The notes beneath the pieces are model-generated. The model made no database searches. It saw only the letters and a list, made by a program, of their open reading frames with translations, and was not told the DNA's origin. A stretch of 64,000 nucleotides of DNA from assembly GCA_007693785.1 (NCBI GenBank), contig RECY01000026.1, positions 1 through 64,000 on the forward strand, given 5' to 3'. The stretch comes from Phycisphaerales bacterium (GTDB taxonomy: Bacteria; Planctomycetota; Phycisphaerae; Phycisphaerales; UBA1924). Below, in pieces: positions 3 through 12,674 of the stretch (its first letter is position 1; each line of letters opens with the position of its first letter). A program made the position numbers and the translations under genes.

Positions 3-965
3 ATCCCCGCCGACAAGCTCCGCCAGATCGTCTCCGCCGAGGACAACGAGCCCACGCTCACCATCGAAACCGACGGCCCCGACCTCGTCCACATCCGAGG
101 CGAGGACGCCCACTTCCAGCTCCACGGGTACGAGCCCAAGGACTTCCCCCCGGTCCCCGAGTTCGACGAGTTCGTTCAGGGCGCGGGCGGGCGATCCCCC
201 GCCAAGTCCGTCTTCGAGCACAACGCCCGCCAGCTCGCCGAGGCCGTCCAGCGAACCATCTTCGCCACCGCACGCGAAAACTCCCGCTACGCGATCAACG
301 GCGTCCTCCTCCGTCGCGAGGGCAAGAAGCTCGAGCTCGTCGCGACCGACGGGCGTCGCCTCGCCCTCTGCCGCACCACGCTCGCCCAGGGCGACAAGAA
401 CGCCGAGCCGGTGAGCTGCATCATCCCGAGCAAGGCGCTCAACCTGCTGCTCAAGCTGATCGACGACCCCGAGGCCGACGTCGCGATCGCGATCGCCGAC
501 AACCAGGTCGTCTTCCACCTCGGCGGCGAGGGCGACCAGGCCGCCGCCACGCTCACCAGCAACCTCGTCGAGGGCGCCTTCCCCCCCTACGAGGACGTCA
601 TCCCCAAGGATCAGGACATCCGCGTCAGCTTCGACCGCGACGTGCTCGCCAGCGCCGTCCGGCGGGCCGCCCTGCTCACCAACGAAGAGTCCCGCGGCGT
701 CCAGATGTCCTTCACCGCCGAGGACAAACGCCTCGAGCTCACCAGCCGAGCGCCCGAGATGGGCGAGGCCCAAGTCCGCGTCGAGCTCATGGATTACGAG
801 GGCGCCGACATCAAGATCGGCTTCAACCCCGCCTACCTCACCGACGCCCTCAAGGTCATCGGCGACCCCAAAGTCGTCCTCGAACTCAAAGCCAGCAACA
901 AGCCCGGCCTCGTCCGCAGCGGCACCGAGTTCATGTACGTCGTCATGCCCGTCAACCTCCAATAA
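3..965 (+). CDS. dnaN: DNA polymerase III sliding clamp (beta subunit), 5' end outside window
   Basis: The reading frame is open from base 3 and runs about 320 codons to TAA, so the start lies upstream of the window. The protein is the ring-shaped clamp that tethers the replicative polymerase to DNA. Recognisable parts are TDGRRLA in the middle domain, the segment with EGAFPPYEDVIP, the RAALLTNEES helix region, the IKIGFNPAYLTDAL segment of the third domain, and the classical C-terminus ending in YVVMPVNL. These match the family closely. It is followed by a 252-base gap and then an unrelated secreted protein, so no dnaA-recF arrangement is visible on this side. Codon choice is strongly C-ending, as expected of a highly expressed host gene. 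Confidence 0.96.
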   Translation: MPADKLRQIVSAEDNEPTLTIETDGPDLVHIRGEDAHFQLHGYEPKDFPPVPEFDEFVQGAGGRSPAKSVFEHNARQLAEAVQRTIFATARENSRYAINGVLLRREGKKLELVATDGRRLALCRTTLAQGDKNAEPVSCIIPSKALNLLLKLIDDPEADVAIAIADNQVVFHLGGEGDQAAATLTSNLVEGAFPPYEDVIPKDQDIRVSFDRDVLASAVRRAALLTNEESRGVQMSFTAEDKRLELTSRAPEMGEAQVRVELMDYEGADIKIGFNPAYLTDALKVIGDPKVVLELKASNKPGLVRSGTEFMYVVMPVNLQ

Positions 966-2628: not shown

Positions 2629-2994
2629 TCAGCCGCCACGCCCCGCGCCGCCGCACGCCCCCGGGCCGGGGCCCGAGCCGGAGCCCGAGCCGGAGCTTGA
2701 GCCCTGATTCTGGCCCTGGCTCTGGCCCTGGCCGCGCCCCACCCGAGCCGCCAGCAGCGAGAGCTGGCGCACCGCCTGGCGCTGGCTCGATTCCAGACTC
2801 GCCAGCGCCCGCGTGTTCGCCTGCAACGCGTCCAGCACCGCGCGCAGCTTCACACGGTCCTCGCGCACCCGCTCGTGCAACTCCAGCAGCTGCTTCTCGC
2901 GCGACAGCGACGCGCGACGCTCGCTCAGCCACATCAGCCCGATGATCCCCGCCGCCCCGAACTGCGCCGCCAGCTCCAACCCCGGCGCGCTCAC
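2629..2994 (-). CDS. small membrane protein with coiled coil, last gene of phage-like cassette
   Basis: A protein of 121 residues with one hydrophobic segment at the N-terminus (about residues 8-24, ending in GLMWLSE), a charged helical region of about 60 residues (REKQLLELHERVREDRV onward) likely to form a coiled coil, and a low-complexity tail made of GQ, GS and GP dipeptides encoded by degenerate hexamer repeats. The GTG start overlaps the stop codon of the upstream gene by four bases (GTGA), so translation is probably coupled. Size and topology resemble small phage membrane proteins such as holin-like or spanin-like products, but there is no diagnostic motif and the position at the end of the tail genes is the main argument. 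Confidence 0.6.
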   Translation of the reverse strand: MSAPGLELAAQFGAAGIIGLMWLSERRASLSREKQLLELHERVREDRVKLRAVLDALQANTRALASLESSQRQAVRQLSLLAARVGRGQGQSQGQNQGSSSGSGSGSGPGPGACGGAGRGG

Positions 2995-3425
2995 ACCTGG
3001 CTCTCCGACGTCTCAAAGCTCACCCCGCGAACATTGAGCGCCGACGGCGGCGGGAACGTGAACCGGCGGAACTGCGCCTCGTACGCCACCGACCACAGCC
3101 GACCACGCTCGGCCGGGCCCTCTTCGACGTACCCGATGAAGCTCATGTCCGCCCAGCTCCGACCGGTCGTGTCCACCAGCGTCCCCGGCGAGGGCGGATC
3201 GAGCAGCTGCGCCGTCACCGCGTCGCGCAACGCCCACAGGCCGCTCTCGCTCGACGCCACCAGACGACCCGCAATGAACACCTCCAGCTCGAACAACCCG
3301 TAATCAAACGACACCGGGCTCGGGCTCCCGAAAAACAACTCCCCGAGCACCAGGTTCCCCCGACGCCCCACCCGCGAACGGTGCGGCCCTGATCCAAACA
3401 AGTCGATCGACTTAAACGAACTCAT
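2991..3425 (-). CDS. phage tail-associated protein (putative)
   Basis: A protein of 144 residues. The ATG at 3425 follows GGGGAGGTGTTGG, a strong Shine-Dalgarno sequence. An upstream in-frame extension exists but is made only of translated palindromic repeats and is rejected. The sequence is beta-rich with LVLGELFFGSPSPVSFDYGLFELEVFIAGR and a central SWADMSFIGYVEEGP. It has no signal peptide. The length, beta-rich character and place downstream of capsid and connector genes fit a virion or tail component; I do not recognise a named family. Two palindromic repeat units (3445-3594 and 3611-3747) separate it from the preceding cassette gene. Confidence 0.55.
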   Translation of the reverse strand: MSSFKSIDLFGSGPHRSRVGRRGNLVLGELFFGSPSPVSFDYGLFELEVFIAGRLVASSESGLWALRDAVTAQLLDPPSPGTLVDTTGRSWADMSFIGYVEEGPAERGRLWSVAYEAQFRRFTFPPPSALNVRGVSFETSESQV

Positions 3426-3444
3426 CCAACACCTCCCCGCGCCC

Positions 3445-3594
3445 TGTGCCACTGACCTTGTCCGCAAGGTCAGTGCTCCCCGACCTCTCCACCCTCTCCC
3501 CCGCTCCGAACTTCTCAACCCCAACAACAAACCAGAGATCAGAAGAAGAATGAGACTCAGAAGCACTGACCTCTTAGAAGAGGTCAGTGGCACA
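3445..3594. repeat. family A MITE-like palindromic unit, copy 1
   Basis: Left hairpin TGTGCCACTGACC..GGTCAGTGCTCC, about 85 bases of spacer, then the inverted copy GCACTGACC..GGTCAGTGGCACA. The outer ends TGTGCC/GGCACA are inverted repeats. It lies inside the phage-like cassette, between two of its genes. Confidence 0.85.
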
Positions 3595-3610
3595 CCGGAT
3601 CTCCCCCCCG

Positions 3611-3747
3611 GGTGCCCCGGAAACGCGGAGCCGCCGCGGCGCAGCTTTTCCGGGCTCCCCACCTCCACACCTCCCCGCACCGTCCGCGCCCGATCATGGA
3701 AAAGCTCCGCCGGGCTCAGAAGCCCGGCTCCGCGTTTCCATGCCACC
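3611..3747. repeat. family B (RAYT-associated) inverted pair, copy 1
   Basis: GGTGCCCCGGAAACGCGGAG..GCAGCTTTTCCGGG followed about 40 bases later by the reverse-orientation copy CATGGAAAAGCTCC..CGCGTTTCCATGCCACC. Each half folds as a hairpin (GGAAA/TTTCC with a GC-rich inner stem). It has the same design as the two units that flank the transposase at 27095-27610. Confidence 0.85.
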
Positions 3748-3764
3748 AAGCGATGACTCCCCCC

Positions 3765-4187
3765 TCAATCCCCCGTCGCGTCCTCGCTCACCGACACCGG
3801 ATCCCCCGCCCCCCCATCGCTCGACACACCCCGAAACGTCACCGTCCGCGTCGCGCCCTGCTTGAGCCCGACGCCGTGCGACACGCCGATCACCACCGCG
3901 CTCACCGCGACGCGCACCTTCCGCCCGCTCCCGCCCGCCGCCGCGTACGCAAACACCAGCTCCCCCGCATCGCCCGGCCGCGGCACATCCGGCACTTCCC
4001 CCCGCGCCAGCTGCTGCACCACCGTCACCGCCACGCGCTGCTCCACCGCATCGACCAACACGCAGTGCGGCCCCGCATCCCCAAAACTCTCCACCAGCTT
4101 CACCGCCTGCCGATCCACCACGACCGACACCACCTCGCCCCACGCCTCGCCCGCGAACGTCACCCGCCTCGGGTTCAACACCAGCAT
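3765..4187 (-). CDS. tail tube-like protein of phage-like cassette (putative)
   Basis: A protein of 140 residues; the ATG at 4187 follows GAGGAGGGTTGCG. Predicted to be almost all beta strand: opening RRVTFAGEAWGEVVSVVVDR, central GPHCVLVDAVEQRVAVTVVQ, closing ATRTVTFRGVSSDGGAGDP. The alternating hydrophobic pattern and the TVTF..S.DG.DP ending are reminiscent of small tail tube or tail terminator proteins of siphophages, an inference from pattern and position rather than a confirmed family match. Host-like base composition suggests long residence in this genome. Confidence 0.5.
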   Translation of the reverse strand: MLVLNPRRVTFAGEAWGEVVSVVVDRQAVKLVESFGDAGPHCVLVDAVEQRVAVTVVQQLARGEVPDVPRPGDAGELVFAYAAAGGSGRKVRVAVSAVVIGVSHGVGLKQGATRTVTFRGVSSDGGAGDPVSVSEDATGD

Positions 4188-4210
4188 CGCAACCCTCCTC
4201 TCCCCTCCAA

Positions 4211-4240
4211 ATCCTCGGTGGAACGGGCGTCCCGCCCGTC
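4211..4240. repeat. short palindrome in the gap between two cassette genes
   Basis: GGTGGAACGGGCGTCCCGCCCGTCCCTACCACC contains the hairpin ACGGGCG-TCC-CGCCCGT with GGTGG/CCACC-like ends. It sits in the 83-base gap before the gene starting at 4187 and is a different repeat type from families A and B. Confidence 0.6.
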
Positions 4241-4270
4241 CCTACCACCTCTTCACCTCTGCCCCCACGC

Positions 4271-4909
4271 TCACCCGCGCAGCAACCGCTGCACGCTCGG
4301 GCGACGCGCCACGTCCGCCACGCCGTCGCCGTCCAGGTCCACCTCCGCCACCACGCGCCGGCGCTCGGCCTCGAACCGCTGGCGGTACACCTCCGCCCGC
4401 TGCCCCACCGGGCTCTCCGGCCCCGTCGGCGCGCTCGCCGCCATCAGCACCAGATACACCGCCGCCAGCGACTCCAGCAGCTTCAGCGATTCGGCGTTGG
4501 TCACCGCGCCCGCCGTCGGCTCGCCCGGCATCGACGAATCCAGGCCCAGCAACGCCAGCACCTGCCCGTGCGCGATCGCCAGCTGCGGCCCAAACGTCAC
4601 CACCTCCGCCACCTGCCCGCTCGACACCGGCGTCGGCGTGATCAACGCGTCCGACGCGCTCGCACGCAGGCGGCTCACCGTCATCGTGTTCGTCCCCAGA
4701 CGCTCGATGATCTCCAGCGAGGTCCCGCCGATGCGCACCACCTGCCCCGGCGCGACGCCGGCCGCGTCGAACGCGACGTCCGGCAGCGCCATCGTCAGCG
4801 TCGTCCCGCTGATCGTCGCGCTCCCGCGCACCGGGCGCTGCCCCACCCACACCACGTCGCGGAACAGCTCCGGCTCCAGCGCCAGCAGGTCCCGATCCTT
4901 TGCGAACAT
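4271..4909 (-). CDS. head-tail connector-like protein (putative)
   Basis: A protein of 212 residues; the ATG at 4909 has AAAGGA 7 bases upstream. The N-terminal half contains a small beta domain: MFAKDRDLLALEPELFRDV, then AGVAPGQVVRIGGTSLEII, a fold seen in phage structural proteins that follow the capsid gene. The C-terminal half is helical with a short acidic DLDGDGVADVARRP segment resembling an EF-hand-like calcium loop. It is placed directly after the major capsid gene, where head-closure or connector genes usually lie. The assignment rests on position and on this domain layout. Confidence 0.55.
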   Translation of the reverse strand: MFAKDRDLLALEPELFRDVVWVGQRPVRGSATISGTTLTMALPDVAFDAAGVAPGQVVRIGGTSLEIIERLGTNTMTVSRLRASASDALITPTPVSSGQVAEVVTFGPQLAIAHGQVLALLGLDSSMPGEPTAGAVTNAESLKLLESLAAVYLVLMAASAPTGPESPVGQRAEVYRQRFEAERRRVVAEVDLDGDGVADVARRPSVQRLLRG

Positions 4910-5080
4910 CGCGCCGTCCTTTCATCCAAAGCCCGGGCGCGCCCGCCTGAGGAGGGCGGCGAGCGCGCCGCGGGCGTGTGTGCCGCCGATTACCGACAAC
5001 GTTCTTGCGTCAAGCGCCGGGCAACGGGTTCCCCCACCGCCCGGCACGCACGCGGGCCGCACGGCCCGCTTCCCCGTCCC

Positions 5081-5148
5081 GGTGGCACAGCTCTCCGAGC
5101 TGTGCCCAAACGTGCAGAGGAACACACAGCTCGGAGAGCTGTGCCGCC
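5081..5148. repeat. family C inverted hairpin pair
   Basis: GGTGGCACAGCTCTCCGAGCTGTG and, after about 18 bases, CACACAGCTCGGAGAGCTGTGCC. Each is a perfect ACAGCTC/GAGCTGT hairpin and the two are inverted relative to each other. A single copy of the same sequence occurs at 11532-11557. Confidence 0.85.
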
Positions 5149-5156
5149 ATGCCCAC

Positions 5157-6326
5157 TCAGACCGCCAGCCCGCCGATCACGCCGTGCGCGTTCTCGTTGC
5201 GGATCTCCAGCGTGTACTCGCCGACAACCTGCCCGCGCACCGCGTCGCCCGAGGCCGCGAGCGGCTTGTAGTGGAAGCTGCGCCCCTGCAGCGGCATGAC
5301 GTCGAGGCGCGTGCTGTCGAGCAGCAGCACGGTGTCGGGCGGCGCCCAGCGGCTCAGCACAACCTTCGCGACGCCGTAGTCCGATTCGTAGACGCTCACG
5401 AGGTCCCGAAAGGCCGTGTCCTCGGGCAGGTAGGCGCGAGCGGTGGAGGCGAAGGCGTTGATGCGGCGCTTCTGCGCGCCGCCGACGACGATTGTGTCGA
5501 CCACGCCGGAGGACTGATCCCAGATGCGGCGCATCGCCGCGTTCAGCACGGCCTCGTTGAGCGCGTCGTCGTTGTCCCCGTCGCCGTCGGGCATGCCGCC
5601 CGCGCCGGGCGCGAAGACGTTGCTCTGGATCGTGCGCACCAGGCCGCGCATGGAGCGTCGGACGGTGCCGGAGCCCTGGGCGTCGCTCTCGGGCGCGACG
5701 CCGTTGATGACGGTGTTCTCCAGGTCGCGGAGCAGCTCGCGCATGCGTTCCTGCTTCTGGTAGTCGAGCTCGTCGTCGATGCCGATCTGGCGGGCCGCGA
5801 GCATGGAGCCGGAGACCTCGATGGTCTTGGTGAAGATCTGCGTGTAGTTCTGCTGGCGGCTTCGGCTGGTGAACCGGGCCGCGTCGGCATCGGCGCCCTC
5901 CAGGGCGGCGTTGCCGAGGATGGTCAGGGTCATGCCGTTCGCGAGGGCCGCGGGCGTGGTGCCGCCGTAGCCGCGGACGACAACGATGGTGTTCGCGACG
6001 GCCGCGGTGATGAGCATCACCTCGCCGTGCTCGCCCGGGCGCACCAGGTCGCCGACGCGGAACCGCGGGCCGTTGCTGACCGTCAGCGAGGTCGCGCCGG
6101 TCGGGTTCGGCGTGAAGTTCGTCTGATTGAGCGTGTCGGTGTTGGGCAGCAGCGCGTCCTCGATCCACTCGTGCACCGTGCTCGTCGCCGCCCGCTTCGG
6201 ATCGCCCAGGTGATCCAGCAGCGGCGTCTCGTGCGGGCTGACGATCCCGATCACGTCGCTCACGTCCTCGGCCAGCTCCGGCAGGCCCGCGCCCGCCCCG
6301 TACGTCGCTTTCCCCGTGAATGCCAT
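5157..6326 (-). CDS. major capsid protein, SU10-like / DUF5309 type
   Basis: A protein of 389 residues. The ATG at 6326 is chosen because AAGGAG lies 7 bases upstream; a TTG two codons earlier is also open. Features typical of the SU10-like HK97-fold capsid family are present: start MAFTGKATYGAGAGLPELAE, then DVIGIVSPHETPLLDHLG, the conserved HEWIEDALL, the beta insertion FRVGDLVRPGEHGEVMLIT, QQNYTQIFTKTIEVSGS and the QKQERMRELLRDLE helix. It is full length for the family and shows no frameshift. This is the most diagnostic gene of the cassette and shows that it derives from a tailed phage. Confidence 0.88.
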   Translation of the reverse strand: MAFTGKATYGAGAGLPELAEDVSDVIGIVSPHETPLLDHLGDPKRAATSTVHEWIEDALLPNTDTLNQTNFTPNPTGATSLTVSNGPRFRVGDLVRPGEHGEVMLITAAVANTIVVVRGYGGTTPAALANGMTLTILGNAALEGADADAARFTSRSRQQNYTQIFTKTIEVSGSMLAARQIGIDDELDYQKQERMRELLRDLENTVINGVAPESDAQGSGTVRRSMRGLVRTIQSNVFAPGAGGMPDGDGDNDDALNEAVLNAAMRRIWDQSSGVVDTIVVGGAQKRRINAFASTARAYLPEDTAFRDLVSVYESDYGVAKVVLSRWAPPDTVLLLDSTRLDVMPLQGRSFHYKPLAASGDAVRGQVVGEYTLEIRNENAHGVIGGLAV

Positions 6327-6401
6327 GCGCAAACTCCTTCAAGGCGCCGCCCCGCGGCGCGGTTTCGATCCCCGATGCACAAAAACCCGTCAAGACCAGC
6401 C

Positions 6402-7046
6402 TCATCCCCCGCCGCGGCGCAGACGCAGGTAGCGCAGCAGCTCGCGCCGGTCCCCGCTCTCTCGTGCGTGCGAGGCGACCTCTTCCAGTTCTTCCAGGAA
6501 CCGATCGACCGACGACGCCGGCGAACCCATCGCGCTCATGCCGCTCGGCGACCCGCGTGACAGGCCGCGCGACACCCCGGGCGACGGCTCCGGGACCGGC
6601 TCGGTCGGCGGCGTGAACAGGAACGGCTTCTCCTGACGCAGCCGCTCCACCGCCTCGCGCGGGCAGTCGCACCCGCCGCCGTCGAGCAGCGTCTCGACCA
6701 GCATCAACCCCGTCTCCAGGTCCACCGCGTGCGCTTCGCCGAGCAGTCGCTCGCTCTCGCGCCGTTGCTCGACCGCCTCGGCCTCCGCCTGCGCCTCCGA
6801 CAACGCACGCTCCGCCGACGCGAGCGCACTCGTCAGCTCTTCGACGCGCGCTTCCAGTTCCGCGGCCTTTGCCTCGGCCGCCTCGGCCCGACGGCGACAC
6901 GCCACACCGTCCGCCGGCTCGCGGCGCGGAGCGGTCGAGCCGCCGTCGCCACCGCCGCCACCACCACCAGCACCGCCACCACCGCTCCCGTCATCGCCCG
7001 CACCGGGCGACTGCGGGCCAGATCCGATCGAGCTGTCTTCCGACAT
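6402..7046 (-). CDS. scaffold-like coiled-coil protein between portal and capsid genes
   Basis: A protein of 214 residues; the ATG at 7046 has a near-perfect AAGGAGG 6 bases upstream. The N-terminus is a Gly/Ser-rich linker, residues about 55-100 form a continuous Ala/Glu-rich coiled coil (AEAAEAKAAELEARVEELT), followed by a DLETGLMLVETLLDGG helix, a CDC pair, a Pro/Ser-rich stretch and a basic C-terminus LLRYLRLRRGGG. Acidic coiled coil plus basic tail, and location immediately before the capsid gene, are the hallmarks of capsid assembly scaffolds. No protease motif is visible. Confidence 0.65.
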   Translation of the reverse strand: MSEDSSIGSGPQSPGAGDDGSGGGGAGGGGGGGDGGSTAPRREPADGVACRRRAEAAEAKAAELEARVEELTSALASAERALSEAQAEAEAVEQRRESERLLGEAHAVDLETGLMLVETLLDGGGCDCPREAVERLRQEKPFLFTPPTEPVPEPSPGVSRGLSRGSPSGMSAMGSPASSVDRFLEELEEVASHARESGDRRELLRYLRLRRGGG

Positions 7047-7148
7047 CACGCACCTCCTTCAAGCCGCACCACGCACGGCCCAAGCACACCGATCCCGATT
7101 CCACAAATGACTGATCCCTGATGGCTGATCGCGGATGCCCCGCCGCGC

Positions 7149-8765
7149 TCACTGCACGCCCGGGTCGTCGCTCGTGAAGCCGAGCTCGCGCAGCACGCGC
7201 TCGCGGGGGACGCCGAGCTCGAGCTTGGTGCGCGCGTCGGCCGCGCGTTCGCGGAGGTCGACCGGGAGCGGGTCGGGCCAGTCGAGGCGGACGCCGCGGC
7301 CCTCGGGCGCGGTCGGCAGGACGCCGGTCGCGTCGAGCGCGGCGAGCACGAGCGCGCTGACGCGCGCCATGCCCGCGCCGTAGGTCACGCGCTTCCGCGC
7401 CGTCTTGCTGAGCAGGCCCATGAGCGTGATCCGCAGCGCGTTGGCGCTGGTCAGGTTGCCGATGCGGGCGCGCACGACGCCCGAGGCGAGCGGCGGCACG
7501 CCGCTGACCTTGTCGAGGGCCTCGCGGATCTGCTGCAGGTGGCTCTCCTCGCTCGGGCTGTCGGCGTCGCCGCCGAACGCCTCGACGCTCGCGTCGGGGT
7601 TGTCGGTCGTCCAGACCGTGCCGGGCGCCACGGGCACGCGGTCGAAGCCCTCGATCCCCCGCGCCAGGTACATCTTGAAGCTCTGCATCGTCACGCGGCT
7701 CGCGCGGTCGCTCAATCGCGTGTTCAGCTCGTCCTGCAGCGGGATCAGGGGCTCCACCTCGCCGAGGCCCTCGTAGCGGAAGGGCTGGCTGACGTTCTGC
7801 ACGTGCACGACCGGCGGGCGTCCGGCGGCCCAGTCGTGCGCCTCGCGCATCACCTCGCGCCCGTCTTCGAAGACGCGTCGGTCGTGCGGGCCGATGACCT
7901 CGGTGTAGCGCGATCGCTCGCGTCGCCCGCGGGCGGGCTCGGCGCCGATCGCCTCGCGGACGCGCCCGAACAGCCGCCCGTGGCGGGCGGGGGCGGCGGC
8001 GCGAGCGGGCGGGGTGGCGCGCTCGCGCTCGTAGGTCACGGCATATGCGAGCAATCGCCGGTAGTCGCCCGGATCGAGCAGCGGGACGCCGCGGGTGGGC
8101 TCGATCGGCTCGATGCGGACGAGTTCGGCCGCCGCGCGGAGGACGGCATCATCCGGCGTCGCGGAGCCCACCGACAGGGCGAGCGCCCGCAGGCCCGGCG
8201 CGTCGGCGCGGACGGCGAGATCGACGTAGCCGTAGACGTGCCCGAGCAGCGCGACGTCCTGGAGCAGGGCGACGCCGCCGGAAGCTTCCCAGACCATGTC
8301 GAGCACGCGCTCGATGCGTCGGCGCTCGGCGTCGTCGAGATCAGCGCCGGTGGCGCGGATCGCGACGGGCTTGCCGAACATGAAATCGACCTGGGCGTGG
8401 ACGCGCCAGGCGATGTCGTTCTCAACCACGACCTCGCGCCGGGCGGCGCGTTCGGCGCTGCCGCCGGTGATGCGGTCGGGCAGGCCCTGCTCCTGCGCGA
8501 GGCGCGGGCGGGTGCCTTGCCCGGTGAGGTCGGGCGATCCGGCGTTGGGGTGCGCGCCGGGGCGTGCCCCGAGCTCGGCGTTGCGGTAGTAGCGCCAGTA
8601 CCGCTCGAGCTGCGGGCGTCGGGTGCGCTCGTGCGACTCGATCGCCCCGGCGAGCGCGTCGTCGAGGGCCGTGTCATCGAGCCAGCCCGAGGAGGTGTGC
8701 GCCCCGCCGCCTCCTCCGCTCGCGGCGGGTGGCGTGGGCGTGGGTGCGGTGGTCGTCTCGAACAT
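7149..8765 (-). CDS. phage portal protein, SPP1 gp6-like
   Basis: A protein of 538 residues; the ATG at 8765 has GGGGAG 6 bases upstream. It forms the dodecameric ring at one capsid vertex through which DNA passes. The family is recognised from the N-terminal RRPQLERYWRYYRNAELGAR, the segment VENDIAWRVHAQVDFMFGKP, the GVPLLDPGDYRRLLAY region, PLIPLQDELNTRLSDRASRV, and the helical C-terminal SEESHLQQIREALDKVSGVPP followed by LTSANALRITLMGLLSKTARKR. Length is normal. It is the first gene of the seven-gene cassette; the expected terminase large subunit upstream is absent, the next upstream gene being a dockerin-type secreted protein. Confidence 0.88.
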   Translation of the reverse strand: MFETTTAPTPTPPAASGGGGGAHTSSGWLDDTALDDALAGAIESHERTRRPQLERYWRYYRNAELGARPGAHPNAGSPDLTGQGTRPRLAQEQGLPDRITGGSAERAARREVVVENDIAWRVHAQVDFMFGKPVAIRATGADLDDAERRRIERVLDMVWEASGGVALLQDVALLGHVYGYVDLAVRADAPGLRALALSVGSATPDDAVLRAAAELVRIEPIEPTRGVPLLDPGDYRRLLAYAVTYERERATPPARAAAPARHGRLFGRVREAIGAEPARGRRERSRYTEVIGPHDRRVFEDGREVMREAHDWAAGRPPVVHVQNVSQPFRYEGLGEVEPLIPLQDELNTRLSDRASRVTMQSFKMYLARGIEGFDRVPVAPGTVWTTDNPDASVEAFGGDADSPSEESHLQQIREALDKVSGVPPLASGVVRARIGNLTSANALRITLMGLLSKTARKRVTYGAGMARVSALVLAALDATGVLPTAPEGRGVRLDWPDPLPVDLRERAADARTKLELGVPRERVLRELGFTSDDPGVQ

Positions 8766-8986
8766 GGCGGCTCCCCTGTCGGCAAAACCGGCCCCGGCGA
8801 CACCCGCCCGGGCCTCCGCCAGACCGCCCCGCGCCCGCGAACGCGCGCACGAACCGCGCCATGTGGGCCGCCCGCGCAGCGCGCAAGGCCACCGCCCGCA
8901 GCCTGTTCAAGATTTCTGCACGAAGCCGCGAACACGCCGGCGCCACGATCGCGGGCGTGCGCACACGCTCGGTCGCCAGGCCGCAA

Positions 8987-10048: not shown

Positions 10049-11245
10049 TCAGTTGGCGACGGGTGGGAAGAAACGGTTGTTGTAGTAGTCCTGATAGACG
10101 TCTTCGAAAGCCTGCGTCCGGGCGTGCCCGTCCAGATACAGGTAGTTGCTGCGGGCGGCGGGGGTCTTGTTTTGCCCGCCGTGGGCGGCGATGTCGGCCT
10201 GCTGGGCCGCGAGTCGTGCCGCGTCGCCGGGCTGCGCGAACAGCGGGTTGGGCGCCCACTGATTCACGTGCACGTGGTCGGCGTAGGCGAAGCGGGCGCT
10301 GTCGACCGTCTGGGTCATCATCAGGAAGTGGACGGTCGCGTGCGGGCGCGGGACGAGCGGGAGTCGGTTGTAGGGGCGGAGCTGCCCGAACCGCGGGTCG
10401 CGGATCAGGGACATCTTGTTGGTCGTGTAATCGTTGAGGCCGTAGCTGGTCCAGCGGGCGATGTCGGTCGGGGCGGGGTCGGTCGCGGGGTCGCCGTCGG
10501 TCAGGCGGTCCAGGGCTCGGGCGAGGGTGAGGCCTTCGGACTGCCCGCCTTCTTCGATCGGCCAGGCGGGGCTGCGGTCGACGGGGGATCGGGTGACCAG
10601 GGCGCCGCCGTTGTAGGGTGCGAGGGTGGTGACCCAGCTCCGCGCGGGGGTGCCCGCGCCGCCGTGGTCGAGCCCGGCGTCGACGAAGTGCTCGCGGTGG
10701 TCATTGAGGTAGAGGGTGTGGGCGAGCCCGAGCTGGCGGAGGTTGCTGAGGCAGACGGTGGCGCGGGCCGCGTCGCGGGCGGCCCCCAGGCTCGGGAGCA
10801 GGATGCCGATCAGCAACGCGATGATCGCGATGACCACCAGCAGCTCGATGAGCGTGAACCCGCGGGGCGAGCCCGCGCAGGTGTCGCACCGCCCGTAGAG
10901 CGTGATCTCGTGACGCTGGAGCCTGAACCCTTTGGGCAGCAGGGACTTGAGGCCGCCGGGGCAGCCTTCGATATCGAAGACTTTGTCGCAGTCGTCGCAG
11001 TGGAAGTGGTGGTGGTGATGGTCGGCCGCGGACTGGAGCTCGTAGCGGGGCGAGCCGCCGGGGAGATCGACCTGGGCGAGCTCGCCGTCCTCTTCCATGC
11101 GTCGGATGGTGCGGTAGACGGTGGCGAGGGAGAGGGAGGGGGCGTCGGGCTGGGCGAGTTCGAGGACCTCCGCCGGGGCGAGGGGACGCCCCGTGGCCCG
11201 GAAGGCCGCCTGGATCGCCTCTCGCTGACGGGTCACTCGGCTCAT
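10049..11245 (-). CDS. Fur-family metalloregulator fused in frame to type IV pseudopilin
   Basis: A single 398-residue frame, ATG at 11245 with GGAG just upstream. Residues 1-125 are a complete Fur/Zur/PerR-type protein: winged helix with [18 protein letters not shown], metal-binding [11 protein letters not shown] and the terminal CDTC structural zinc pair. Five residues later the frame enters a perfect class III prepilin signal, [20 protein letters not shown], with the G/F cleavage site and Glu+5, followed by a periplasmic pseudopilin body ending in the planctomycete-type [11 protein letters not shown]. There is no in-frame start codon near the junction from which a separate pilin could be translated. 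If real, prepilin peptidase would cut between the two halves and release the Fur part in the cytoplasm. Confidence 0.85.
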
Positions 11246-11452: not shown

Positions 11453-11522
11453 TATGCCACTGACTTCTTTTGAGAGGTCAGCGCTCCGGAGCACTGACCT
11501 TGCGGACAAGGTCAGTGGCACA
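11453..11522. repeat. family A palindromic unit without spacer
   Basis: TATGCCACTGACTTC..GAGGTCAGCGCTCCGG joined directly to AGCACTGACCTTGCGG..GGTCAGTGGCACA. The two hairpins of family A are here back to back, in the gap between the Fur fusion and the ABC ATPase gene. Confidence 0.8.
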
Positions 11523-11531
11523 GGGGCAGCC

Positions 11532-11557
11532 CACACAGCTCGGAGAGCTGTGCCACC
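11532..11557. repeat. family C hairpin, single copy
   Basis: ACACAGCTCGGAGAGCTGTGCC, identical over the hairpin to the right half of the pair at 5081-5148. It lies between a family A unit and the ABC ATPase start. Confidence 0.75.
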
Positions 11558-11574
11558 AGGAAGGAAACTGCGGG

Positions 11575-12258
11575 ATGCCGGATGATCAGGTGGCGGCGCT
11601 CCAGATCGAGAACCTCGCCTTCCGCTACCGCCCGGGCGAGGCGGAGGTGGTGCGAGTCGGCTCGCTGGTGGTTGGGGCGGGCGAGGCGGTGCTGCTGACG
11701 GGGGCGAGCGGGCGTGGGAAATCGACGCTGCTGCAGCTCGTCGCGGGGCTGCTGGAGCCGAGCGAGGGGGTGGTGCGTGTGCGCGGGCAGGACATCCACG
11801 AGCTGCGCGGGGCGAAGCGGGACACGTTCCGCGGTCGTCAGATCGGGATGATCTTTCAGACGTTCAACCTGCTGACGGGCTTCAGCGCGAGCGAGAACGT
11901 GATGGCCGCGATGCACTTCGCCGGCGGCACGCCCGCGGGGGAGCAGCGAGGCCGCGCGGTGGACACGCTGTCGAAGCTGGGGCTCGACCGCGTGGACGCG
12001 CCGGTGGAGGAACTGAGCGTGGGTCAGCAGCAGCGGGTGGCGGTGGCTCGCGCGGTGGTGAACCGCCCGGCGCTGGTGCTGGCCGACGAGCCGACGGCCA
12101 GCCTCGACCCGCCCCGCGCGGACGAGGCGATGGACCTGATCCGTCGCGCGTGCGCCGAGGCCGGGGCGGCGCTGGTGTGCACGAGCCACGACCCGCGGAT
12201 GGCGGACCGGTTTGAGCGACGCGTGGGGCTGGACGAGCTGGCGGGGGCGGCGGTGTAA
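11575..12258 (+). CDS. ABC transporter ATPase, LolD/MacB type
   Basis: A protein of 227 residues; the ATG at 11575 is preferred because AGGAAGG lies about 10 bases upstream and the 35-codon upstream extension is translated repeat. Walker A is GASGRGKST, the Q-loop lies in IGMIFQTFNLL, the ABC signature is LSVGQQQRVAVARA (LSxGQ form), Walker B with catalytic Glu is LVLADEPTASLD, and the H-loop is CTSHDP. The length and NLLTGFSASENV are typical of ATPases that pair with FtsX-type permeases to move lipoproteins or other envelope substrates. Its partner permease is the next gene, although 416 bases of repeats separate them. Confidence 0.9.
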   Translation: MPDDQVAALQIENLAFRYRPGEAEVVRVGSLVVGAGEAVLLTGASGRGKSTLLQLVAGLLEPSEGVVRVRGQDIHELRGAKRDTFRGRQIGMIFQTFNLLTGFSASENVMAAMHFAGGTPAGEQRGRAVDTLSKLGLDRVDAPVEELSVGQQQRVAVARAVVNRPALVLADEPTASLDPPRADEAMDLIRRACAEAGAALVCTSHDPRMADRFERRVGLDELAGAAV

Positions 12259-12274
12259 ACAACGCCCGGTTTCC

Positions 12275-12320
12275 GGTGCCATGGAAACGCGGAGCCCGCC
12301 GCGGGCGGAGCTTTTCCATG
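12275..12320. repeat. family B hairpin, solo copy
   Basis: GGTGCCATGGAAACGCGGAG..GGAGCTTTTCCATG, one half of the RAYT-associated inverted pair, 16 bases after the ABC ATPase stop. The second half is not present here. Confidence 0.8.
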
Positions 12321-12382
12321 ACGGCGGGGACGGCGATGTGGAGGGGAGTCGAACCCGAGGAAGGAGCGAGGGAGAGTGAGGA

Positions 12383-12432
12383 GACCCCCTCAGTCGGCTT
12401 CGCCGACAGCTCCCCCGCAGGGGCGGGGGAGC
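12383..12432. repeat. family E repeat, copy 1
   Basis: CCCCCTCAGTCGGCTTCGCCGACAGCTCCCCCGCAGGGGCGGGGGAGC. The same pieces (CGGCTTCGCCGA and a CCCCCGC/GCGGGGG stem) recur in inverted order at 20444-20501 and in divergent form at 40566-40628. Confidence 0.65.
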
Positions 12433-12441
12433 GAAAGAGGG

Positions 12442-12634
12442 GCACTGACCTTGCAGACAAGGTCAGTGGCACAGGGCACTTTCCGGATGTGCCACTGACC
12501 TCTTCTGAGAGGTCAGTGCTCCGGGCCGCCCTCTCTCGCTCTTCACGCTCTTTCTGTGCGGGGGCGAACGACGAAGGAGCGTCGGAGAAGGGGGAGAGGC
12601 GGGAGCACTGACCTTGCGGCAAGGTCAGTGGCAC
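12442..12634. repeat. family A: solo hairpin plus full pair
   Basis: A right-type hairpin (GCACTGACCTTGCAGAC..GTCAGTGGCACA) at 12442-12473, then a complete pair 12488-12634 (left TGTGCCACTGACC, right GAGCACTGACC..GGTCAGTGGCACA). The spacer contains GAAGGAGCGTCGGAGAA, which recurs almost unchanged in the spacer of the 20547-20737 copy. These repeats fill the gap between the two ABC transporter genes. Confidence 0.8.
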
Positions 12635-12674
12635 AGAGGCAGGGCAGGTGTGCGATGCGAAAGGGACTCGGCTC

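What the first reader, a model, noticed from the sequence alone, without database searches (positions are those of the whole stretch)
2629..8765. Phage virion cassette without terminase, integrase, protease or lysin
Seen: seven co-directional genes in the order portal, scaffold-like, SU10-like capsid, connector-like, tail tube-like, tail-associated, small membrane protein, all intact. Their composition is like that of the host, and they are inserted between dnaN-side genes and a dockerin gene. Known: a functional prophage needs a terminase and recombination genes. Inferred: either a remnant or a domesticated device such as a gene transfer agent, tailless shell or injection particle whose DNA-packaging motor is encoded elsewhere. 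Seven intact frames argue against random decay.
Basis: partly seen in the sequence, partly recalled or inferred. Interest (0 to 1): 0.75.

Follow-up and report, generated by a model that had tools for sequence, protein, structure and literature searches.

The report
Inherited phage-like particle, motor encoded elsewhere
Bacteria across an environmental order appear to keep, by descent, genes for a virus-like DNA-packing particle whose packaging motor lies elsewhere in the chromosome, which would make it an undescribed kind of gene transfer agent; in several relatives a mobile element sits inside the particle's shell gene.

Summary
The seven-gene virion cassette is real and intact and is not a decaying prophage. 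Its capsid gene is found in 107 of 150 related genomes, follows host families and DnaN, has dN/dS well below 1, and in about two fifths of the loci examined keeps shared chromosomal neighbours. Capsid and TerL co-occur: 102 both, 5 and 14 alone, 29 neither. Best reading: a domesticated, mainly vertically inherited, gene-transfer-agent-type particle split over at least two loci. Particles and DNA transfer are not shown. Unexpected: in nine relatives an 11-kb serine-recombinase element with its own protease-capsid gene is inserted at one conserved site of the capsid gene. My paper searches found neither described.

The parts
7149..8765 (-). portal protein, 538 aa
   Evidence: PF05133 E 2.8e-17; phrog_104 E 3.7e-25
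6402..7049 (-). scaffold-like coiled-coil protein, 215 aa
   Evidence: PF06810 E 1.2e-4, below cut-off; phrog_1793 E 5.7e-4; position
5157..6326 (-). major capsid protein, SU10 type; conserved start is residue 3 of the frame that begins at 6332
   Evidence: PF17236 E 8.3e-90; in 107 of 150 relatives; solved relatives by sequence, best E 2.8e-23
4271..4909 (-). conserved 212-aa protein in the head-tail connector position; function by position only
   Evidence: conserved in order in relatives; no family match
3765..4187 (-). tail tube protein, 140 aa
   Evidence: model pLDDT 92.7; best solved match a siphophage tail tube, E 6.7e-6
2991..3425 (-). tail hub/Dit-like protein, about 144 aa from the conserved start
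   Evidence: alignment A2; model pLDDT 89.3; baseplate proteins, E 6.8e-5 down, SPP1 Dit E 6e-3
2629..2994 (-). small membrane plus coiled-coil protein, holin-like (UviB type)
   Evidence: phrog_1625 E 0.003 for the window protein; 11 and 7 of 22 relatives match UviB-type PHROGs
8955..8968 (.). palindrome GCGTGTGCGCACGC upstream of portal; window form of the conserved TTGTGCGCACAA site
   Evidence: 3 mismatches to TTGTGCGCACAA; 61 of 85 upstream regions have such a site, shuffles 6-10; sequence
5084..5145 (.). host REP-like palindromes between capsid and connector-position genes
3445..3594 (.). second host REP-like palindrome pair between tube and hub genes

Best explanation
The cassette is the virion half of a domesticated DNA-packaging phage-like particle of the gene-transfer-agent type, spread over the order. 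Shown: head and tail genes lie in one operon-like cluster; the packaging motor TerL lies at a second chromosomal locus, usually with a GNAT-like gene, a two-HTH sigma-like regulator and a divergent XRE-S24 (CI-like) repressor; both loci occur together in genomes, mostly follow the host's descent and are under purifying selection. Inferred: relief of the repressor turns on regulator and motor; the cassette is switched on (by an unknown factor at the palindromes before portal); portal, scaffold and capsid make a prohead; TerL docks on the portal and fills it, by headful, with chromosomal DNA; tube and hub add a tail; the holin-like protein helps release. In this genome the two loci are about 274 kb apart, so a particle of usual phage size could not carry its own full gene set.
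For: Intact genes with tail-tube and hub folds. Capsid in 107 of 150 relatives and 59 named loci, all Phycisphaerae or Planctomycetota by title. Unlinked TerL in 116 of 150, identified by PHROGs and by annotated phage TerLs, motif residues invariant in 50 of 50. Co-occurrence 102/5/14/29. Family clades on both trees; MCP-TerL distance correlation 0.63; MCP against DnaN rho 0.68. dN/dS medians 0.17-0.35. Shared chromosomal neighbours. Repressor-regulator-TerL locus. No relative in viral contigs for patterns from this capsid; best listed phage match 34%. Host REP-like repeats inside the cassette.
Against: No particle, packaged DNA or transfer was observed. No tape-measure, receptor-binding, TerS or endolysin gene was identified in the window's family. 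MCP and TerL trees agree at family level but share the nearest neighbour in only 21 of 45 genomes. Co-occurrence inside the window's own family is not significant, because nearly all have both (77/4/8/1, P 0.42). No operator shared by the two loci was found. Some genomes lack both genes (29 of 150), and most f2 genomes are among them. In 33 of 42 or more genomes the loci are only tens of kb apart (median 33 kb), so a large head could hold both there.
Confidence: 0.72

Rival explanations
1. A domesticated particle of another use: an injection or killer particle, or a shell that carries protein or selected DNA, built from the same motor, shell and tail genes.
For: Same genes and same selection pattern; no transfer shown. 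Tail-side genes differ between families: f6 loci have about 7 kb more, with a lectin-like domain.
Against: A TerL with every nuclease and ATPase motif residue kept in 50 of 50, co-occurring with the shell, points to general DNA packaging; no toxin-like gene was seen in the cassette.
Confidence: 0.17
2. A temperate phage lineage that infects these bacteria again and again, or integrated relics of it, rather than a fixed host trait.
For: All parts are phage-derived; a CI-like repressor is kept; real, distant SU10-capsid copies at 28-33% identity, which may be prophages, occur in some of the same genomes, e.g. G092.
Against: Family clades, correlation with DnaN, shared housekeeping neighbours, motor separated from shell by housekeeping genes; no integrase or att repeat; no close relatives in phage collections.
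Confidence: 0.07
3. A decaying prophage remnant.
For: No integrase, lysin or replication genes in the cassette; a few relatives have broken copies (G100 stop; G021, G098, G101 partial or rearranged).
Against: Seven intact frames; median dN/dS 0.17-0.35; retention in at least six families with an unlinked motor.
Confidence: 0.03

Closest known systems
Gene transfer agents classified as viriforms (Rhodogtaviriformidae/RcGTA, Bartogtaviriformidae, Brachygtaviriformidae; PMC9662315, passages)
   Same: Tailed-phage structural genes kept in the chromosome, at more than one locus, inherited with the host and congruent with host families; the tail tube model also matches RcGTA chains, more weakly than phage tubes.
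   Different: SU10-type capsid (only Pfam match PF17236) instead of the HK97-like MCP named for RcGTA in that paper; TerL sits outside the structural cluster, beside a CI-like repressor; host phylum differs. Particles and transfer are not shown here.
Tailed phages with SU10-type capsids
   Same: Capsid family; Sporosarcina phage Lietuvens MCP 34% identical over 94% of the query; solved capsids found by sequence, best E 2.8e-23.
   Different: No phage record covers 80% of the portal or TerL; genes split over chromosomal loci.
Capsid-forming PICI satellites (for the element found inside the capsid gene; PMC10690885, passages)
   Same: Small island with integrase, primase-like gene and its own protease-capsid gene.
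   Different: That paper says cf-PICIs encode portal, connectors and both terminase subunits; none is among the seven main genes scanned in one element. Here a large serine recombinase targets the host particle's capsid gene.

Membership tests
Gene transfer agent (six criteria listed in PMC9662315) | Caudovirion-like particles are produced | not testable with these tools
   Genes for head and tail only
Gene transfer agent (six criteria listed in PMC9662315) | Particles mostly hold random pieces of host DNA | not testable with these tools
   Needs sequencing of protected DNA
Gene transfer agent (six criteria listed in PMC9662315) | Genes endogenised in the host genome, often at multiple loci | tested here: met
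   Cassette and TerL about 274 kb apart; 42 genomes seen with both on one contig, 9.8-649 kb apart; host repeats inside the cassette
Gene transfer agent (six criteria listed in PMC9662315) | Genome cannot be fully packaged in one particle | tested here: inconclusive
   274 kb between loci in this genome, but median 33 kb elsewhere; head size unknown
Gene transfer agent (six criteria listed in PMC9662315) | Mostly vertical inheritance and co-diversification with hosts | tested here: met
   Family clades, MCP-TerL correlation, DnaN correlation; agreement is not complete (nearest neighbour 21 of 45)
Gene transfer agent (six criteria listed in PMC9662315) | DNA is delivered to other cells | not testable with these tools
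   Needs a transfer assay
RcGTA lineage (Rhodogtaviriformidae) | HK97-like major capsid protein | tested here: not met
   Only Pfam match of the capsid at E up to 1 is PF17236, SU10_MCP
Intact temperate prophage | Integrase, att sites and terminase together with the virion genes | tested here: not met
   No integrase among flanking genes scanned, no att-type repeat, TerL 274 kb away
Capsid-forming PICI (the inserted element) | Encodes portal and terminase besides capsid and protease | tested here: not met
   Pfam scan of seven genes of the L037 element and two cargo genes of L036: recombinase, AAA_25, capsid, sigma, one unknown, restriction-modification genes; small ORFs not scanned

The most novel reading that the evidence does not exclude
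The particle is a gene transfer agent with its own dedicated parasite: an 11-kb capsid-encoding satellite integrates at a conserved motif of the particle's major capsid gene, switches off the host shell and supplies its own protease-capsid in its place, and borrows the host's unlinked motor, portal and tail to spread between genera; excision would restore the host capsid frame.
Probability: 0.2. Interest if true: 0.93.

Novelty: new variant of a known kind. Interest (0 to 1): 0.82.

Why it matters
If it packs host DNA, this is another independent domestication of a tailed phage into a gene-transfer machine, in a group for which my searches found none described, built on a different capsid family and with motor and shell separated. 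More than 100 genomes with it, some with a mobile element in the capsid gene, make it directly testable how such systems are kept and exploited. The separation also shows why tools that expect terminase beside capsid would miss such systems.

Tried and rejected
TerL with Pfam PF03354 in the own genome: no match; it was found with phrog_2. The three weaker phrog_2 hits (E 2.8e-4 to 0.12) were not followed up. TerL has no sequence match in the PDB at E up to 1, portal only one at E 0.48.

Shared operator: TTGTGCGCACAA, common before portal, was absent at 2 mismatches or fewer from 15 TerL-locus intergenic regions, and near TerL only scattered inexact sites were seen. GTTC-N10-GAAC is in 5 of those 15 and in 1 of 85 portal-upstream regions. 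The six satellites have no portal-type site at one mismatch. Exact sites occur in 46 of 150 genomes, up to 18 in one, so the unknown regulator is not specific to this cassette.

Programmed excision argued from selection on interrupted capsid genes: rejected, because the satellites look recently spread (81-93% identical DNA between hosts whose own capsid and portal DNA is 71-79% identical, in four of five pairs; the fifth pair has distant satellites, 68-75%).

The recombinase match over the capsid N-part in G098 is no proof of a satellite remnant, since the recombinase frame runs antisense over that part in carriers; the partial copies in G098 and G021 are unexplained.

That the window's contig is from another organism (a second dnaN on contig C14) is disfavoured by repeats shared with many other contigs.

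G100 was dropped from the MCP tree. One search used 82 genomes with full-length matches to both proteins; genomes with partial or missing matches were left out. The 85 upstream regions and 111 attachment sites include repeated genomes. Script gene calls use a codon-position GC rule and miss genes. dN/dS is Nei-Gojobori without codon-bias correction. Shuffles were single-base. Searches of viral contigs with one protein reach close relatives only. The match list was cut, so may miss pairs.

Papers: listings only; abstract, outline and passages of PMC7947584; passages of PMC9662315 and PMC10690885. 'Not described' rests on those eight searches of an open-licence library.
Full report
Observation. 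The minus strand of 8765-2629 holds seven consecutive open frames. Portal and capsid are certain (PF05133 E 2.8e-17; PF17236 E 8.3e-90). The scaffold call is weak. The 140-aa protein folds confidently (pLDDT 92.7); its best solved match is a siphophage tail tube (E 6.7e-6), and RcGTA chains follow at E about 0.01. The next protein, from its conserved start at 3425, folds at pLDDT 89.3 and matches baseplate proteins and, more weakly, SPP1 Dit. The last, 121 aa, matches UviB-type PHROGs in 11 and 7 of 22 relatives at E up to 0.1, so I read it as holin-like. The 212-aa protein is unidentified. Composition is host-like.

It belongs to the chromosome. Two kinds of dispersed palindromic repeats sit in the cassette's intergenic gaps; the core of one occurs 35 times in the genome, the reversed control 0 times. 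No att-type repeat brackets the cassette and no flanking gene scanned is a recombinase.

It is widespread in relatives. With the capsid as query, 107 of 150 related genomes match at E up to 1e-5, mostly one full-length copy at 54-74% identity. In the window's family (own genome included) 81 of 90 match; of the nine misses, six are under 90% complete. A scan of one genome per species gave 59 loci, all titled Phycisphaerae or Planctomycetota groups. The order portal, scaffold, capsid, connector-position, tube, hub, membrane protein is kept in most loci long enough to show it, some genes being undetected in single loci. In three f6 genomes (L050, L052, L054) about 7 kb separates the connector-position and membrane genes; in the two of them read, this holds further large genes, one with a lectin-like domain. 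In viral contigs no relative was confirmed, and the best listed phage match is 34% identical.

The motor is elsewhere. In the window's own genome phrog_2 finds a 517-aa TerL at contig position 280,650-282,200, about 274 kb from the capsid gene. Five TerL PHROGs match at E below 1e-3, as do annotated phage TerLs over the nuclease part; Pfam gives only PF17289 just below its cut-off. Of 150 relatives 116 have it. In 50 TerLs the Walker A residues R87, G88, G90, K91 and T92, the pair D179-E180, S217, T218 and H220, and D352, D407, D493 and D497 are invariant (motif names are recalled). Capsid and TerL: 102 both, 5 capsid only, 14 TerL only, 29 neither (P 1.5e-15); outside the window's family 25/1/6/28 (P 3e-10); inside it 77/4/8/1 (P 0.42), where nearly all have both. 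Related genomes are not independent, so the P values overstate the evidence.

The TerL locus has a shape of its own. Of 23 loci, 19 have the GNAT-like neighbour, 18 the two-HTH sigma-like protein and 18 a divergent XRE-S24 protein. Ordinary genes lie between TerL and cassette: in G097, by reading, a ferredoxin and a phosphoglycerate mutase. In 42 genomes where I saw both on one contig the distance is 9.8-649 kb, median 33 kb; in seven one-contig genomes 27-67 kb. They probably descend from one prophage pulled apart (inference). A lipoprotein-like gene found near the holin-like gene in 30 of 60 loci lies at a third place in the own genome, contig position 212,449-212,928; whether it belongs to the particle is open.

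Inheritance and selection. On trees of MCP (60 rows) and TerL (50 rows) the window's family is one clade (SH-aLRT 98 and 99); all family labels need 6 and 5 changes, the minimum being 5. MCP and TerL distances correlate (r 0.63, n 45; 0.46 inside the family, n 33; 0 of 2000 permutations each), but nearest neighbours agree in only 21 of 45. MCP similarity to the window's copy follows DnaN similarity (rho 0.68, n 82; 0.44 inside the family, n 62). Median dN/dS over related pairs: MCP 0.17 (14 pairs), membrane protein 0.21 (10), portal 0.23 (12), hub 0.26 (7), connector-position 0.27 (13), scaffold 0.30 (7), tube 0.35 (9); single values reach 0.92 (tube) and 0.75 (portal, a pair in which both carry the satellite). 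TerL: 0.08-0.58 in nine usable pairs of ten. Of 60 loci, 17 have both a phosphoglucomutase/phosphomannomutase gene upstream and an amidohydrolase-like gene (by reading) downstream, and 26 have at least one of four shared neighbours. In the window's genome the cassette sits beside dnaN instead, as in one other locus, L118.

Control. Before portal a palindrome TTGTGCGCACAA occurs within three mismatches in 61 of 85 regions against 6-10 in five shuffles; 38 regions have two or more, most often 110-114 bp apart. Its regulator is unknown and it is not shared with the TerL locus.

The element in the capsid gene. In nine of the 107 capsid-positive genomes the capsid gene is cut at the same few codons (around E-D-x-L / L-P-N). 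Six have the whole insert, 10.5-11.6 kb, on one contig; in three the contigs end inside it. In G101 the element stands beside a rearranged capsid gene. Two named contigs, L140 and L143, show it too and may or may not be extra genomes. Gene order in five of the six whole inserts: large serine recombinase, AAA_25/primase-like, protease-capsid fusion (PF25209 E 1.2e-36; phrog_4523 E 8.8e-69), sigma-like protein, conserved 185-aa protein; in the sixth (L040) the last two were not detected, and in L038 the element's capsid gene is in broken frames. The two elements whose cargo was scanned carry methylase genes, one with a SacI-type endonuclease. The C-side junction has CAGACGGG in six of six and the N-side its inverse in five of six; by inference excision would restore the capsid frame. 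Elements are 81-93% identical between hosts whose own genes are 71-79% identical in four of five pairs, so they move. Relatives of the element's capsid are in 65 of 150 genomes, up to 16 matches in one, and none in the window's genome; most listed places are not at the capsid gene. Use of the host particle as helper is not shown.

Conclusion. Of six criteria for gene transfer agents in PMC9662315 (passages), two are met, one is inconclusive and three need experiments. I call it GTA-like, probably a new independent domestication, and not a member of the RcGTA lineage.

Noticed in passing
L036-L041 inside the capsid gene; L247-L253; L140; L143: An 11-kb element with large serine recombinase, primase-like gene, protease-capsid fusion, sigma-like gene and restriction-modification cargo sits at one conserved site of the capsid gene; the recombinase frame runs on, antisense, over the capsid N-part.
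   Followed up: partly
150 relatives, e.g. G114, G101, G002, G035: Relatives of that element's protease-capsid gene occur in 65 of 150 genomes, up to 16 matches in one genome, most not in the capsid gene: a large, apparently undescribed family of capsid-carrying islands.
   Followed up: no
window 3445-3594, 5084-5145, 11510-12635 and further: Two families of REP-like palindromes scattered through the genome, 14 matches of one in the window, 35 genome-wide matches of the other.
   Followed up: partly
window 3-965 and own contig C14:24017-24946: The assembly holds two dnaN copies, the partial one at the start of this contig and a 68% identical one on contig C14.
   Followed up: no
L050, L052: Family f6 cassettes carry extra large tail-side genes of unknown family, one protein with a Laminin_G_3 domain; their counterparts in the window's family were not found.
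   Followed up: no
L031:3167-4084 and TerL loci: A GNAT-like protein (phrog_886 E 3e-7) stands next to TerL in 19 of 23 loci; its role in a packaging locus is unknown.
   Followed up: partly
window 10049-11245: One frame joins a FUR-family repressor to an N-methylation/DUF1559 pilin-like protein; fusion or missed stop.
   Followed up: no
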